From assembly GCF_003416765.1 (NCBI RefSeq), contig NZ_QSNG01000001.1, positions 894,742 to 958,741 of the forward strand: DNA of 64,000 bases. The letters run 5' to 3'. This document shows, in pieces, positions 56,888-63,202 of this stretch. A model generated the notes under the pieces. The model was not told where the DNA came from. It made no database searches and saw nothing but the letters and a program-made list of their open reading frames with translations. This stretch comes from Paratractidigestivibacter faecalis (lineage in GTDB: Bacteria > Actinomycetota > Coriobacteriia > Coriobacteriales > Atopobiaceae). The first letter of the stretch is position 1. Every line of letters begins with the position of its first letter. The position numbers and the translations under genes are program-made.

Positions 56888-57730
56888 CTACCCCAGTGCG
56901 TCGGCGAGCAGCCGCGCGCAGTTCTCCAGATACAGCTCCTTGGCGGCTTCGTCCGTGGCGGCAAGGTCGTACTGGCACGCCTCGGCAAAGGGGATGCGCT
57001 GCCACTCGCCATCCGCCGGGAGCTCAAAGACCCCCACGCGCTCGGGATGCTCGGCGAGGTCGAGGGAGATGCGCGCGTAGGGGTGCTCGATCAGGCAGTA
57101 GGTCTGCTCGTACGTCGCGGGGTCCTTCTCGCTCGGATAGCGCTTGGGCTCAAGGAAGAACAGGTACTCCTGCCCCGCGCGCAGCGGCATGAGGCCGAAC
57201 CGGCTTGGGCCCTCGCTGCCCCTCCACACCTCGCGCACGTCGCTGAACTGACCCGTCCCCAGGCCGTTTCGAGGCTCCGTGATCTTGTACGCATCGTAGA
57301 CGACGAGGTCATCGCCTTCGGAGACGCCCTCGCCCCTCAGGACCGACGTCACCTCGATATGGCACTGGAATGCCTGGTAGACGTAGGTCCTCTCACCCGT
57401 GAAGGTGCCCGTGAGCACGATGGGGGCCTCGTCGAGCACCTCCTCGGACGCCATCCCAAGGGTATACGCCGCATCGACCCCGGCGGGAAGCGCGGCCTCG
57501 TCCGCCGCCGCCGCGATCTCCTCCCGCGTGTGCAGGCTAAGCGCGTCCGTCGATGCACGCGAGCCCACCACGAAGGGAAGCTGCTCCACGGCAGCCCCGT
57601 CGTGCGCATAGTCCGTGAGGCTTGCCCGCATGGCAAGGCCCACTCCCACGCAGACGGCCACGAGCGCGCCACACACGAGCAGGAGGGTCCTGACGGTCAG
57701 CACGGGGAGGCGGAGCTTGCTTCGCCTCAT
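56888..57730 (-). CDS. Membrane-anchored exported protein of the ABC locus
   Basis: 280 residues. RSKLRLPVLTVRTLLLVCGA begins a single N-terminal TM (about 12-34); the remainder is exported and soluble, with VLTGTFTGERTYVYQAFQCH, GLMPLRAGQEYLFFLEPKRY. Not recognised. Its start overlaps the ATPase gene by four bases, so it works with that transporter; a substrate-binding or periplasmic adaptor role is inferred. Confidence 0.75.
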   Translation of the reverse strand: MRRSKLRLPVLTVRTLLLVCGALVAVCVGVGLAMRASLTDYAHDGAAVEQLPFVVGSRASTDALSLHTREEIAAAADEAALPAGVDAAYTLGMASEEVLDEAPIVLTGTFTGERTYVYQAFQCHIEVTSVLRGEGVSEGDDLVVYDAYKITEPRNGLGTGQFSDVREVWRGSEGPSRFGLMPLRAGQEYLFFLEPKRYPSEKDPATYEQTYCLIEHPYARISLDLAEHPERVGVFELPADGEWQRIPFAEACQYDLAATDEAAKELYLENCARLLADALG

Positions 57731-58377
57731 GAGCGATCGACCTCCTTGGCCACGTGCCCGTCGACCATGCGCCAGCTGCGCTCGAACAGCGCCTCGAGCG
57801 CGGGCTCGTTGTGACAGGCGACGAGCACGGTGCAGCCGCGCTCACGCTCCTCACGCACGATCTTTGCAACCGTCTCGATGCCGTCCACGTCGAGAGCGTT
57901 GGTGGGCTCGTCCAGAATGAGCAGCTCGGGCGCCTCCATGATTGCCTGCGCGATGGTGAGGCGCTGCCTCATGCCCATGCTGTACGCCGAGAACGGGCGG
58001 TCGTCGTCGGGGGCAAGACCCACACGCGCAAGCGCCGCCCTCGCCTCGGCCTCGCCCGCCACACCCCTGATGGACGCGAGCATCGTGAGGTTTCTCAGGC
58101 CCGTGCTCTCGTCCCAGAAGCCTGCCGACTCAAGGACCAGGCCGAGACTACGCGGAAAGTCGACGTCCACGCCAATCCTTTGCCCAAAGACGTCAACCTG
58201 GCCCGAGGTGAGGTGAATGAGTCCCGAGATGGCCCTGAAGAGCATCGTCTTGCCCGAGCCGTTGATGCCGCTGAATCCGTAGATTCCGCCACGCGGCAGC
58301 GTGAGTGTCACGTCGTCGAGCACGACGCGTCCGTGAATCACCTTGGTCGCATGGGTTACCACAATCTCATCAGACAT
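57727..58377 (-). CDS. ABC transporter ATP-binding protein
   Basis: 216 residues: Walker A FSGINGSGKTML, Q-loop region VLESAGFWDEST, signature YSMGMRQRLTIAQA, Walker B LLILDEPTNALD, H-loop VACHNE. The signature deviates from LSGGQ, as in ABC-2-type exporters and bacteriocin-immunity transporters. Short (single NBD); pairs with the three permeases upstream. Confidence 0.92.
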   Translation of the reverse strand: MSDEIVVTHATKVIHGRVVLDDVTLTLPRGGIYGFSGINGSGKTMLFRAISGLIHLTSGQVDVFGQRIGVDVDFPRSLGLVLESAGFWDESTGLRNLTMLASIRGVAGEAEARAALARVGLAPDDDRPFSAYSMGMRQRLTIAQAIMEAPELLILDEPTNALDVDGIETVAKIVREERERGCTVLVACHNEPALEALFERSWRMVDGHVAKEVDRS

Positions 58378-58389
58378 GAAAGCCTCCCG

Positions 58390-59166
58390 TCAGAAGATGT
58401 CGCGGGCGCGCACGAGGCGAAGCGCCACCACCGCCGCAAGCGCGACGCACGCGCCGAGGTACGCAAGAGACGCGACGACCGAAAAGCCAGGGACGCCCAG
58501 CGAGAAGGCCGAGGTCCATCCCGAGCAGTCGTGCCAGGCAAGAACCCCCTGCGCAAAAGGCAGCCACGGAGCCACGGCCATGGCCGCCTCGCGCGGAAGG
58601 TAGGCGAGCCCGACCAGGCCCGCAACGTAGATCCCCTCAACGACCGCAAAGGCCACGACGGGTTCCAGCTTGATCGCAAGGCAGTTGACCGCAAGCACAA
58701 GGCATAGCGTGAGCGGAAAGCCCAATGCAGCGCAGCGCGCGACGACGCCGATGAGCTCCGGCACGCTTGCCGTACAGCCGCAGACGAACAGGACCGCGCC
58801 GTTCGCAAGCTGGCTGAGCAGCGAGAACGCAGCCGAGAGAAGCGCAAGGTGAACCAGCTTGCTCGCCAGCCATACCCCCCGCGATCCCACGCGCGGGAGC
58901 ACGGCCGCGGCATCCGACCCAAGACCGCCTGCCAGAACGTCCGAGAAGAGGAAGCAGAAGGCAGCCTGGGGAGCGAACCACGCAATGAGGACCATGATGT
59001 TCGGCCTGCTCCCAAAGAGGCTTGGAACGAGGAGTCCCCCGCCCACAAACTCATAAAGGGCCGCCTGCGCCCCATAGCCCCTCATGCACAGCGTCGCGAC
59101 CAGGCTCGCCAGCACGCAGAGCGCCACCCGCACGAACTGGGCACGCCGCATCGGCAGAAGGGTCAC
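58390..59166 (-). CDS. ABC-2-like permease 3
   Basis: 258 residues with about six hydrophobic segments, for example FVRVALCVLASLVATLCM, AAFCFLFSDVLAGGLGSDAA, and VVASLAYLGACVALAAVV, ending RLVRARDIF. GTG at 59166 is favoured by spacing from CGGAA; ATG at 59151 is an alternative. Confidence 0.78.
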   Translation of the reverse strand: MTLLPMRRAQFVRVALCVLASLVATLCMRGYGAQAALYEFVGGGLLVPSLFGSRPNIMVLIAWFAPQAAFCFLFSDVLAGGLGSDAAAVLPRVGSRGVWLASKLVHLALLSAAFSLLSQLANGAVLFVCGCTASVPELIGVVARCAALGFPLTLCLVLAVNCLAIKLEPVVAFAVVEGIYVAGLVGLAYLPREAAMAVAPWLPFAQGVLAWHDCSGWTSAFSLGVPGFSVVASLAYLGACVALAAVVALRLVRARDIF

Positions 59167-59182
59167 GGAATTGTTCCGACTT

Positions 59183-59923
59183 CTACAGCTCACGAGGCTC
59201 GCCCTCCTCCGGCAGATAATCCTTCTTGCGCACAAGCCAAACGGCGAGCAGGCCAAGGAACGCGCAGAGCGCAGCAAGGCGAAGCGAACCTGCCACCTCC
59301 GCCACAAGGCCATCCTCGGGCATCCCTGTCGCAAGGAGCCATCCCGTCCAAAGCGCAGAATTATTGAGTGCCGGGGTCATGCACAATAGATAGTCGAGCG
59401 CACCGTATCCCAAGGCTGCCAGCATCGCATAGGCACCCGAGCCGGTGAGCAGACGAACCGCCAGGACAATAAGGCACACCACCAGGAAGAAGAGGGTCTG
59501 GAGGACGGTTGCCAGAAGGCCAAACGCCACATAGGCCCCAACCGCATGACCCGTCGGCGAGAGGAGTCGGACGCTCACGAGACCGCACAGCGTGAGAAGG
59601 GCCGAGAGCGCCAGGGCACGCACCACCAGTCGTCCCATGACGGCAAGCAGGGTCCTTCCACGGTTTGAGCGAATCACCCACACGGCCGAGGCCACGGGAC
59701 GCATCGCGCCGGCCGCGCTGAAGGCGCAGATGGGAACGTAGACAAAGGTCGCAAGGCTATAGTTGACGACCTGTCCATAGGCACCCGATAGCGTGCCGTC
59801 GCCCATCGCGGCGACGTTGTGCCCCCACAGCAGGGCAACCACCACGCAGACCCCCGCAAGGACGGCAAGGCCGGCGACGAACCTTCGGTCGAAGAGGCGC
59901 GCGAGGCGCGTTGCGGCGCTCAT
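59183..59923 (-). CDS. ABC-2-like permease 2
   Basis: 246 residues, six hydrophobic segments (about 17-35, 55-75, 95-115, 125-150, 160-185, 215-235), last basic motif WLVRKKDYLPEEGEP. ATG overlaps permease 1 by four bases. The long upstream open frame is a shadow of permease 1. Confidence 0.8.
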   Translation of the reverse strand: MSAATRLARLFDRRFVAGLAVLAGVCVVVALLWGHNVAAMGDGTLSGAYGQVVNYSLATFVYVPICAFSAAGAMRPVASAVWVIRSNRGRTLLAVMGRLVVRALALSALLTLCGLVSVRLLSPTGHAVGAYVAFGLLATVLQTLFFLVVCLIVLAVRLLTGSGAYAMLAALGYGALDYLLCMTPALNNSALWTGWLLATGMPEDGLVAEVAGSLRLAALCAFLGLLAVWLVRKKDYLPEEGEPREL

Positions 59924-60768
59924 AGCAGCACGTCCTTCCTCCGGACAAGGGGAAGCCACATCGCCCCCACGAGCACCAGAAGCACCACGAGGGGTGCAGC
60001 AAGAAACACGGTGGGGCTTCGAGGAATCACGAGGGAGAAGATCAGGCACTGGGCTATGTTCAGGTCCGGGGGAAGCAGGTACGAGGACACAATCAACACA
60101 AGGGCGGGAAGCCCCACCACAAGCAGGCGACTCGTGCGCACGTAGAGCGAGAGGGCAAACGCCGCCAAGGCCAGAAGGCCTCCCCAAAGGGCGTCGTAGA
60201 CGATGAAGATCAGGTTGAGAAGGTAGCGGGCGTTGAGGAAAAGGCCCAGGAAAAGCGTCTTGTCGTACCAACCGGTCGAGTCGACCTCGGCGGCCGAGGT
60301 GTTCAGGAGGAGCTGGTAGGCATCCTGCCCGGACGTTGCGGGAAAGGCAACGAACGCGAGCAGCTGGGACACCAGCAGCGGAACGAACACCACGAGAAAG
60401 CCGCCCACAAAGGCCGCAAGCGCCCCCGAGAAGAGATAGGAACGCAAGGAAGCGCGCACGGCAACGCAACCCGCATACCTTCGCCTCACGTCCAGAAAGA
60501 GGCTGTCCCCAAAGACGGCCGCAGCCAAAAACGGCATCAGGAAGTAGAGGTAGAAGCAGAAGAGCGGCGTCTGCATGGACTCATAGTCGCCCACCCAGGC
60601 CACATCTGCCGCAGGCACCTCGCCCGCATCATGGCCCCAGAACACCAGGCACGTCTGGACGAAGCAGACCGACATGGCAACAAGCCCCACCACGACGGCA
60701 TAGCGCCACGTCTTTGATGCAAGCATGCGTCGAAACTGGAACTGAAGAACGCCCGCTCTTCCTGCCAT
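59920..60768 (-). CDS. ABC-2-like permease 1
   Basis: 282 residues with six or seven hydrophobic segments and the ending LPLVRRKDVLL. First permease of the operon. ATG at 60768 is preferred to the GTG at 60780. The three permeases share a VRxKD C-terminal motif and similar size, suggesting old duplication. Confidence 0.8.
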   Translation of the reverse strand: MAGRAGVLQFQFRRMLASKTWRYAVVVGLVAMSVCFVQTCLVFWGHDAGEVPAADVAWVGDYESMQTPLFCFYLYFLMPFLAAAVFGDSLFLDVRRRYAGCVAVRASLRSYLFSGALAAFVGGFLVVFVPLLVSQLLAFVAFPATSGQDAYQLLLNTSAAEVDSTGWYDKTLFLGLFLNARYLLNLIFIVYDALWGGLLALAAFALSLYVRTSRLLVVGLPALVLIVSSYLLPPDLNIAQCLIFSLVIPRSPTVFLAAPLVVLLVLVGAMWLPLVRRKDVLL

Positions 60769-60795
60769 GTCACTTACCACCCGTCAACACTTGAG

Positions 60796-60824
60796 GGGAC
60801 GGGAGCGCGAAGGCGCCCCGTCCC
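60796..60824 (-). promoter_or_regulatory. Attenuator-like hairpin between the peptide and permease genes
   Basis: Stem GGGACGGG-GCGC / GCGC-CCCGTCCC with a GAAG-type loop and one bulge, no T run. It lies between the small peptide gene and the permease genes and could lower or stabilise downstream transcript, giving more peptide than transporter. Confidence 0.5.
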
Positions 60825-60860
60825 ACATGGTCAGAGGCACGTATCTCGATGCCGAAAAAA

Positions 60861-61016
60861 TTATAATTGAACTAGGATTGGCTCAACGCCGCCACCAATG
60901 AGCTCGCTCGCCAGCGCAGGACGAGGAGCAAGGCAAAGTCCCAGAGCAATGACAGCCGCTCCAGCAAGCACCAGCAGCCTCGACTTGAGCGCCCTCTGAT
61001 AATAGGTTGCATCCAC
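60861..61016 (-). CDS. Small secreted-type peptide
   Basis: 51 residues. Basic start (RALKSRLLVLAGAAVIALGL), hydrophobic h-region, and a signal peptidase-like site ALA-S before SELIGGGVEPILVQL, leaving about 15 residues outside. GTG at 61016 has GGGGGT nine bases upstream. It lies between the double LuxR regulator and an ABC operon. It could be a signal, a bacteriocin-like precursor, or only a membrane-anchored peptide; no modification enzymes are near. Confidence 0.6.
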   Translation of the reverse strand: MDATYYQRALKSRLLVLAGAAVIALGLCLAPRPALASELIGGGVEPILVQL

Positions 61017-61088: not shown

Positions 61089-63086
61089 TCACTTTTGGGG
61101 ATGCAATCGCTCCATGTTTGTAAACCCTACCTCTTCGACGAGGAGTTTTCGCAGGTCGTCAATGCAATGAACCTTGCAGTCATCATAGGTGCGCTGACGA
61201 TACGACCTTACCGTCGCCGGCGTGGTATGCCGTCGCCGGCACACCTCCGGCACGCTGTAGCCACACGCAAGGTCTATCACGACCTCGGCCCTCAAACCAT
61301 CTATGCCACGGCCCTTGAAGTAATGCAGCGCCCGGTCACGCTCCTTTTCCGTTGGCTCGGAGACGGGAACCGCCGCAATCCGCGTCTGATAGACGAATAT
61401 CACAACACCCAGGGAGATGAGTGCCGGAAAGAGGACGTAGATCCAGTCGGTCACGAACCCCGCAAAATACAGTTCCCAGTAATACGTCACCGCAATCCCA
61501 GCAGAGGCCAAAAGGGGCAGCAGCGGAGAGGAGAAGAGGATGTCAAAGCCGCTGAGCATGGTACGCCAGAACGAGGCATATCCCTCCCTTGGCAGCGATG
61601 CCCTCCCTACCACAAGAGACGCAACCAGCAAAAGGGAGGGTCCCCAGATCTTGTAGAGCCACATTCCCCTCCACCCGCAAAACGAACCCGCAGAGATCAG
61701 GCACACAACGACGAGGGAAAGGACCGTCGTGGCCGCAAGCTCCAAGGGCCCCTGCCCACCGCGTGGGCTCTCCGTCGTTTGGTGAAAAGACAGCATCCTC
61801 GCAAAAGAGACAACGGCAAGCACGCATGACACGGCCCACGTGAGGTAGAACGTACCCCTGTGGTACCAGTGCTCGCCAATCTGAACGTTATTTACCGTAT
61901 CAAGGAGCAGCACCAGCACGATAAGCGCACATGCAATGGCTTTCGGCACAAAGGAGCCGCGCTTTTGAGCTGCACCCGACTCGCAAGAAGAGGGCTTGGC
62001 CTCCTTGGTCGCAGACGGCTCCTCGCTCATATCAAGCGCCGCGGCATATTCTCTGAGCTCCCTCGCACCGCCCACACCCAGCTTCTCGTAGCCACGATGC
62101 CGATAGGTTGCGACAGTTGCCTGGGCAACTCCCAATTCGGTCGCAATGGAAACCACGGTGGCACCCATAGCGGTCCGAGCGAGCACGGCGGCCTCGCGTT
62201 CGGTCAAGGGTATCTTTGCCGCTTTGGCAAGACGCTGCTCCATGCGCCGCTCAGCGGAATCGCCAGGGATATCCCGTTCCTCTTCCGCATACTCCCCGTG
62301 CGCCAGAGGACCAGTCTCCCCCTCCCGCCGTTCTCCAGCCCCCCGCACCCGCACCAGCTGGACAAGCGTGAGCACGATCACAAGCACCAGAAAGAAGCCA
62401 TAGAAGGCGGTGTTCGGAAGGCCGGCGTCCAAGAGGTCCGAACGATACTCGCCCACGAAGCTCCGGAATGCCAGAAACGCCATATGACCCGCGAGCAACG
62501 CGGGGACATCCAAAGCCGAGCGACCCCTCGCCTGCCACCGCCGAGCACCAAGCAAGGCGAGCGCAAACACCGCAGCACACAGAGTGCATGCGGCAAAAGT
62601 CGAATCAAAGCCCGGTGCGATCGCAACAAGGACGCATGCCGTCGGCCAGACTCCCCCAACGCCGAACAAGCCAATCAGCCGAGCGCGTGAGGGACTTTCC
62701 CGCACGAGGCCCAGTCCCGCGGACGAAAGCGCCCAACAGGACACCGCCGCAATCACACACACGAACTCAACAAGCGACATGACGTCGTTAAAAGCAATCT
62801 GCTCAACCGTGTCAAGTCCGACATTGCCCCGCACGAGTGCATAGACCTCGGCCGCAGCCAAACCGGCCGTGGCAACCCAGCCCACGCGCACCACAATGAG
62901 GCGAGCCCGAGCAACAATCCCTTGCCACCCCTGTCCCAGGCAGGACGCGAGCAGAGCAATCACCACAAAGAGCATGACGGCAAGCCCGAAGGCCGCTATG
63001 CTCACTTGCCCGGGAATCAGCGGCCCAAAGCTATACACCCCATACGGCATCGCTGCCAGAACCGCCGTCCAGACGCACCAGACCAT
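61089..63086 (-). CDS. Tandem membrane-LuxR regulator with two HTH domains
   Basis: 665 residues. The first half has about seven TM segments (about 5-245) and a LuxR HTH (about 292-350: IPLTEREAAVLARTAMGATV, ATVATYRHRGYEKLG). The second half repeats the plan: five or six TM segments (about 380-570) and a C-terminal LuxR HTH (about 576-650: ATVRSYRQRTYDDCKV). Coriobacteria carry many single TM-LuxR proteins; a fused double copy is unusual. ATG at 63086 after GGGGGAC; upstream codons lie over the pckA terminator. Confidence 0.85.
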   Translation of the reverse strand: MVWCVWTAVLAAMPYGVYSFGPLIPGQVSIAAFGLAVMLFVVIALLASCLGQGWQGIVARARLIVVRVGWVATAGLAAAEVYALVRGNVGLDTVEQIAFNDVMSLVEFVCVIAAVSCWALSSAGLGLVRESPSRARLIGLFGVGGVWPTACVLVAIAPGFDSTFAACTLCAAVFALALLGARRWQARGRSALDVPALLAGHMAFLAFRSFVGEYRSDLLDAGLPNTAFYGFFLVLVIVLTLVQLVRVRGAGERREGETGPLAHGEYAEEERDIPGDSAERRMEQRLAKAAKIPLTEREAAVLARTAMGATVVSIATELGVAQATVATYRHRGYEKLGVGGARELREYAAALDMSEEPSATKEAKPSSCESGAAQKRGSFVPKAIACALIVLVLLLDTVNNVQIGEHWYHRGTFYLTWAVSCVLAVVSFARMLSFHQTTESPRGGQGPLELAATTVLSLVVVCLISAGSFCGWRGMWLYKIWGPSLLLVASLVVGRASLPREGYASFWRTMLSGFDILFSSPLLPLLASAGIAVTYYWELYFAGFVTDWIYVLFPALISLGVVIFVYQTRIAAVPVSEPTEKERDRALHYFKGRGIDGLRAEVVIDLACGYSVPEVCRRRHTTPATVRSYRQRTYDDCKVHCIDDLRKLLVEEVGFTNMERLHPQK

Positions 63087-63173
63087 ACGTCCCCCAAACG
63101 ACTGCCTTTCCCCTAAAACATAGCGCGCGGCCCACGCTCCCCCGCCGCACGAATCGGTGGGCGGGCCCACGCA

Positions 63174-63202
63174 CAAAGAGGGCCCCGGACGATCCGGGGC
63201 CC
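63174..63202 (-). terminator. Terminator of pckA
   Basis: Perfect 10-bp stem GGGCCCCGGA/TCCGGGGCCC with a CGA loop (63180-63202), followed on the minus strand by TCTTTG. It separates pckA from the LuxR gene. Confidence 0.85.

What the first reader, a model, noticed from the sequence alone, without database searches (positions are those of the whole stretch)
56888..61016. Secreted-type peptide with a three-permease ABC system under the double regulator
Same-strand order: regulator, 51-residue peptide with signal-like segment and a 15-residue C-terminus, three related permeases, ATPase, membrane-anchored protein. It resembles peptide export, sensing or immunity systems, but no modification or protease gene is present. 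Regulator plus peptide could form a cell-density or self-sensing loop.
Basis: inference. Interest (0 to 1): 0.65.

Follow-up and report, generated by a model that had tools for sequence, protein, structure and literature searches.

The report
Deletion remnant beside retained ABC operon
The supposed 51-residue signalling peptide is most likely the stump of a larger secreted protein, left when a deletion removed two secreted-protein genes that relatives keep between an unusual double membrane regulator and a transporter operon that probably protects the cell from those proteins.

Summary
Gene order and coordinates are as reported, but the 51-aa peptide is not a conserved peptide. It was not found as a free peptide in 140 family genomes or in genome contigs. 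It matches the N-terminus (signal peptide plus first mature segment) of a ~155-aa secreted protein, 'A', that follows the same kind of double LuxR-type membrane regulator in 14 loci. Close relatives carry A and a second secreted protein, 'B', before the same five genes (three permeases, ATPase, anchored protein). The window lacks ~850 bp: most of A and all of B. Similarity resumes at B's stop codon (85% to an Olsenella locus) and includes the hairpin before the ABC genes. A and B match no Pfam or NCBIfam family and are predicted beta-sandwiches. All 13 strong B hits sit beside this ABC cassette, while ten cassettes, including the window's, lack B; three B genes carry nonsense codons. That asymmetry suggests a Sec-secreted, bacteriocin-like factor with its immunity transporter; here the factor is lost and the immunity arm kept (inference). 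The regulator-A module also precedes other secreted proteins. Remnant ~0.9, immunity ~0.55.

The parts
61089..63176 (-). Double membrane LuxR-type regulator, 695 aa; HTH domains at about 62055-62210 and 61191-61292
   Evidence: PF00196 at residues 323-374 and HTH_23 at 629-662; family HTH profile finds two HTHs, here and in 18 of 19 other homologues; about 14 TM segments by hydropathy
60861..61016 (-). 51-aa ORF: truncated N-terminus of secreted protein A (signal peptide 60909-61016, 15 mature residues 60864-60908, stop 60861-60863)
   Evidence: Score 58 to the A N-terminus of L052, 0 of 5000 shuffles reach it, other secreted N-termini at most 41; same place after the regulator as A in 14 loci; no free-standing homologue
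60842..60862 (.). Deletion junction: sequence like A ends and sequence like the 3' end of B begins; about 850 bp missing relative to L052/L136
   Evidence: Gap between regulator and perm1 318 bp against 1163 bp in L052; similarity to L052 resumes at B's stop codon, 85% over 142 nt
60796..60824 (-). G+C-rich hairpin between the secreted-gene position and perm1, possible attenuator
   Evidence: Fold; one compensated pair relative to L052 (sequences); similar hairpins at this place in L051, L053/L054, L057, L134
59920..60768 (-). perm1, membrane protein of the ABC set
   Evidence: Homologues in 18 of 140 family genomes
59183..59923 (-). perm2, membrane protein
   Evidence: Conserved order after perm1
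58390..59166 (-). perm3, membrane protein
   Evidence: Conserved order after perm2
57727..58377 (-). ABC ATPase
   Evidence: PF00005 E 1.7e-27; best NCBIfam TIGR03740 (lantibiotic protection), 123.7 bits, below its cut-off of 309.75
56888..57730 (-). Membrane-anchored protein, last gene of the cassette
   Evidence: No Pfam or NCBIfam match; conserved as the last gene in most cassettes

Best explanation
The locus is a decayed copy of a Coriobacteriia cassette. In intact copies a double membrane LuxR-type regulator is followed by secreted protein A, secreted protein B, often a hairpin, and then three membrane subunits, an ABC ATPase and a membrane-anchored protein. A and B carry signal peptides and need no dedicated exporter, so the ABC genes more likely protect the producer (immunity) than export the product. 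In the window a deletion of about 850 bp removed most of A and all of B, leaving the start, signal peptide and first 15 mature residues of A as a 51-aa ORF before the retained hairpin and ABC genes. The cell keeps regulator and protection genes without the secreted factor. Shown here: the missing stretch, the identity of the stump, the conserved cassette. Inferred: direction of the change (loss, not gain), antibacterial activity of A/B, immunity function of the ABC genes, control of A/B by the regulator.
For: Stump: alignment score and shuffles, position after the regulator and the V-P-I-V-Y-like mature segment, junction at B's stop codon with 85% identity beyond. Cassette: conserved order in many genomes, three more copies in the same genome, one with A and B (L049), one with B only (L051), one with a broken B (L050). 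Immunity: all 13 strong B hits are next to perm1, while ten perm1 cassettes (window, L055, L056, L059-L064, L065) lack B; three B genes have a nonsense codon; L055 shows regulator and ABC genes with neither A nor B; the ABC genes of the window show no sign of decay (110 synonymous, 89 nonsynonymous changes against 115 and 131 on the L052 branch).
Against: No activity of A or B has been tested and neither has a characterised relative. The ATPase does not reach the lantibiotic-protection cut-off. DNA similarity within the signal-peptide stretch is not above shuffles. Changes before and after the deletion cannot be separated. Only one genome with this deletion is at hand. perm1 was searched only in the family, so the B/ABC asymmetry rests on a limited sample.
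Confidence: 0.58

Rival explanations
1. The 51-aa product is a functional secreted peptide (a 15-residue mature signal or small bacteriocin) that is sensed or exported with the help of the regulator and ABC system; possibly a new use of the stump.
For: Intact ORF with a plausible ribosome-binding site, a signal peptide and an AxA-type cleavage site; neighbouring genes intact.
Against: No homologue as a free peptide; the tail is the first mature segment of A, ending where A continues; the deletion junction lies just behind it.
Confidence: 0.07
2. The ABC set with the anchored protein exports, matures or places A and B on the cell surface (for example as a surface structure), rather than giving immunity.
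For: B is always linked to the ABC cassette; the predicted fold of B resembles many surface and binding domains, among them Bacillus Ena fibre subunits.
Against: A and B have signal peptides; the cassette persists without A and B in ten loci; the fold matches are unspecific.
Confidence: 0.2
3. In intact loci A is the ligand or co-sensor of the double membrane regulator, a sensing module placed in front of interchangeable secreted genes; the window has lost its sensor partner.
For: A follows the regulator on the same strand in 14 loci while the next gene varies (B, or unrelated secreted proteins in L122, L123, L124, L127, L129). Single-unit 12-TM LuxR proteins of Eggerthella lenta are ligand-responsive activators (PMC9734109).
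Against: No binding or regulation was tested; L051 has the double regulator and B but no A, and L055 has the regulator without A.
Confidence: 0.25

Closest known systems
LanFEG-type lantibiotic self-protection ABC transporters (ATPase model TIGR03740)
   Same: Small separate ABC ATPase with separate small membrane subunits, next to genes for secreted proteins; TIGR03740 is the best NCBIfam match of the ATPase.
   Different: Three membrane subunits, not two; score far below the curated cut-off; no lantibiotic modification genes; the secreted partners are ~100-125 residue beta proteins with ordinary signal peptides.
10-12-TM LuxR regulators of Coriobacteriia (DadR, HcdR, CadR; PMC9734109)
   Same: Membrane-embedded N-terminal part and LuxR-type HTH at the C-terminus; expanded in Coriobacteriia.
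   Different: Here two membrane-HTH units are joined in one chain (HTH near residues 320-384 and 621-685) and the neighbour is a secreted protein, not a metabolic enzyme.
Lactococcin 972 family bacteriocins
   Same: Recalled from own knowledge: Sec-secreted beta-sandwich bacteriocin linked to ABC-type genes.
   Different: A and B match no Pfam or NCBIfam model of that family; mature parts are longer; different membrane genes.

Membership tests
LanFEG-type lantibiotic self-protection transporters | ATPase reaches the TIGR03740 cut-off | tested here: not met
   123.7 bits against a cut-off of 309.75
LanFEG-type lantibiotic self-protection transporters | Linked lantibiotic precursor and modification genes | tested here: not met
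   None between 56888 and 63176 in the window, nor in the relatives' cassettes as read
Lactococcin 972 family | Sequence match of the secreted protein to the family models | tested here: not met
   No such match for A or B in Pfam or NCBIfam at E up to 1
Coriobacteriia 10-12-TM LuxR regulators | Membrane-embedded N-terminal domain with C-terminal LuxR HTH | tested here: met
   PF00196 match, second HTH at the C-terminus, about 14 TM segments by hydropathy; but as a two-unit fusion
Coriobacteriia 10-12-TM LuxR regulators | Ligand-dependent activation of neighbouring genes | not testable with these tools
   Needs deletion and transcription data
Peptide-pheromone (self-sensing) system | Short secreted peptide conserved in its C-terminal part among relatives with the same regulator | tested here: not met
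   No free-standing homologue; relatives carry full-length A at this place
Bacteriocin cassette with immunity (as a working analogy) | Secreted factor never without the protection genes, protection genes also alone | tested here: met
   13 of 13 strong B hits beside perm1; ten perm1 cassettes without B
Bacteriocin cassette with immunity (as a working analogy) | Antibacterial activity and specific protection | not testable with these tools
   Needs killing and sensitivity assays

The most novel reading that the evidence does not exclude
Double membrane LuxR proteins and the secreted beta-sandwich protein A form a general sensing module of Coriobacteriia, in which an exported protein (or what it binds) is read directly by a membrane-embedded transcription factor that controls interchangeable secreted antibacterial proteins and their ABC protection genes; the window is a copy that lost the secreted part.
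Probability: 0.2. Interest if true: 0.7.

Novelty: new variant of a known kind. Interest (0 to 1): 0.42.

Why it matters
It removes a false lead (a 15-residue signal peptide) and replaces it with a testable one: a recurring Coriobacteriia cassette of a double membrane regulator, two secreted protein families without known relatives, and a three-permease ABC set that is kept when the secreted proteins are lost. I found no description of it in the held literature. If the immunity reading holds, it gives candidate antibacterial proteins and orphan protection genes in gut and rumen Olsenella-like bacteria.

Tried and rejected
Peptide homologue searches: nothing beyond hydrophobic-segment matches, mostly inside long frames. 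DNA alignment of the signal-peptide region with L052 or L054: not better than shuffles, so not used as evidence. Pfam, NCBIfam and PDB-sequence searches with A and B: no relative. Structure searches: many jelly-roll and related folds at similar scores (for A and B the top VIA-align row is PirA, Z 11.3 and 9.3), too common to assign a function. Lactococcin 972 structures were not among the listed rows, which proves nothing. Common origin of A and B: profile comparison weak (probability 17%). Permease relatedness: not supported. Families of the secreted proteins that follow A in other loci: only Tat-signal matches. Literature on bacteriocins of Coriobacteriia or Olsenella: nothing on this system.

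Full report
What is in the window. The gene order in the finding is correct: regulator 61089-63176, 51-aa ORF 60861-61016, three membrane proteins, ATPase and anchored protein down to 56888, all on the minus strand. The ATPase matches PF00005; its best NCBIfam model is the lantibiotic-protection ATPase TIGR03740, far below that model's cut-off. The membrane proteins, the anchored protein and the peptide match nothing useful. The regulator carries a LuxR-type HTH in the middle and a second HTH at the C-terminus. The three permeases are not detectably related to each other by profile comparison.

The peptide is not conserved as a peptide. Searches of its own genus, of 140 family genomes and of genome contigs gave only matches of hydrophobic segments, mostly in longer frames.

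The rest of the operon is conserved and shows what is missing. perm1 has homologues in 18 of 140 family genomes, with three further copies of the cassette in the window's own genome. After the surroundings were fetched the order perm1-perm2-perm3-ATPase-anchored protein recurs. In close relatives two genes lie between regulator and perm1: secreted protein A (~155 aa, ending in YSW) and secreted protein B (~130 aa), each with a signal peptide. Named loci include an uncultured Olsenella (L136, the contig of L052) and Olsenella sp. KH3B4 (L138, the contig of L054).

The 51-aa ORF is the stump of A. It scores 58 against the N-terminus of L052's A; 5000 shuffles average 22.6 and none reaches 58; twelve other secreted N-termini score at most 41. 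It starts 72 bp after the regulator stop, as A does (44-111 bp in 14 relatives). Its mature tail VEPILVQL lies where A has VPPIVVHLY in L052 or IEPIVTY in L131, and ends at the conserved tyrosine position. The gap between regulator and perm1 is about 845 bp shorter than in L052, and similarity resumes at B's stop codon, 85% over 142 nt through a G+C-rich hairpin into perm1. The hairpin has one compensated base pair relative to L052, and similar hairpins stand at this place in L051, L053/L054, L057 and L134. DNA similarity within the signal-peptide stretch itself is not significant. That the window lost these genes, rather than relatives having gained them, is inferred from the stump of A and from the wide occurrence of regulator-A pairs.

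Loss of the secreted genes is recurrent. B has a single in-frame stop in L057, L066 and L134, and only its C-terminal part is left in L050. In L055 the double regulator is followed after about 90 bp by perm1, with neither A nor B. The cassette without B also occurs in L056, L059-L064 and L065. Conversely all 13 strong B hits in 396 class genomes lie next to a perm1 cassette. This asymmetry, together with signal peptides that make a dedicated exporter unnecessary, favours protection over export. On the window's branch the five cassette genes show 110 synonymous and 89 nonsynonymous changes, against 115 and 131 on the branch of L052, which still has A and B: no sign of decay, though changes before and after the deletion are mixed.

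A and B. Neither matches Pfam, NCBIfam or PDB sequences. AlphaFold2 on shallow alignments gives beta-sandwiches (mean pLDDT 77.7 for B, 75.1 for A). Structure searches return many jelly-roll and related proteins at similar scores; this tells the fold class, not the function.

A wider pattern. A follows a double membrane LuxR regulator on the same strand in 14 loci. In L122, L123, L124, L127 and L129 (and in L130, with the regulator on the other strand) the next gene encodes a different secreted protein, followed in some by small membrane, CxxC-bearing or ABC genes. Regulator-A and B-ABC therefore look like two modules that are sometimes joined; in L052 the ABC genes are closer to the window's than L054's are, while the regulator is more distant (37% against 49%), as expected if the modules recombine. 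The single-unit relatives of the regulator, 10-12-TM LuxR proteins of Eggerthella lenta, are ligand-responsive activators (PMC9734109); a two-unit form with a secreted partner was not found in the held literature.

Verdict. Stump of A by deletion: about 0.9. Retained ABC genes as an orphan immunity arm: about 0.55. Free signalling peptide: about 0.07.

Noticed in passing
L057 6057-6443, L066 5874-6266, L134 6234-6638 (loci turned so that perm1 is on the + strand): Three B genes from different genera each carry one in-frame stop (TAG, TAG, TAA) at residues 39, 43 and 49, with the rest of the frame intact; the clustering at the start of the mature part is unexplained.
   Followed up: partly
L055 (Atopobium sp. 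UBA2090, also L139): Double regulator followed after about 90 bp by perm1, with neither A nor B: a second case like the window.
   Followed up: partly
L122, L123, L124, L127, L129, L130 downstream of A: Regulator-A pairs are followed by other secreted proteins without known family; in L123 the next gene encodes a membrane protein with a CxxC-type motif, in L127 a lipoprotein and ABC-type genes.
   Followed up: partly
L052 (G108) against the window: ABC genes 68-89% identical although the genomes are of different genera, while the regulators are only 37% identical and other genomes of G108's genus have 40% perm1: likely transfer and module exchange.
   Followed up: no
L049, L050, L051 (own genome, contig 1 near 1109 kb, 968 kb, 1664 kb): Three more cassettes in the same genome: one with regulator, A and B; one with a broken B and no regulator; one with regulator and B but no A.
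   Followed up: partly
L065: Different gene order: perm3-ATPase-anchored protein come before perm1, with no A or B.
   Followed up: no
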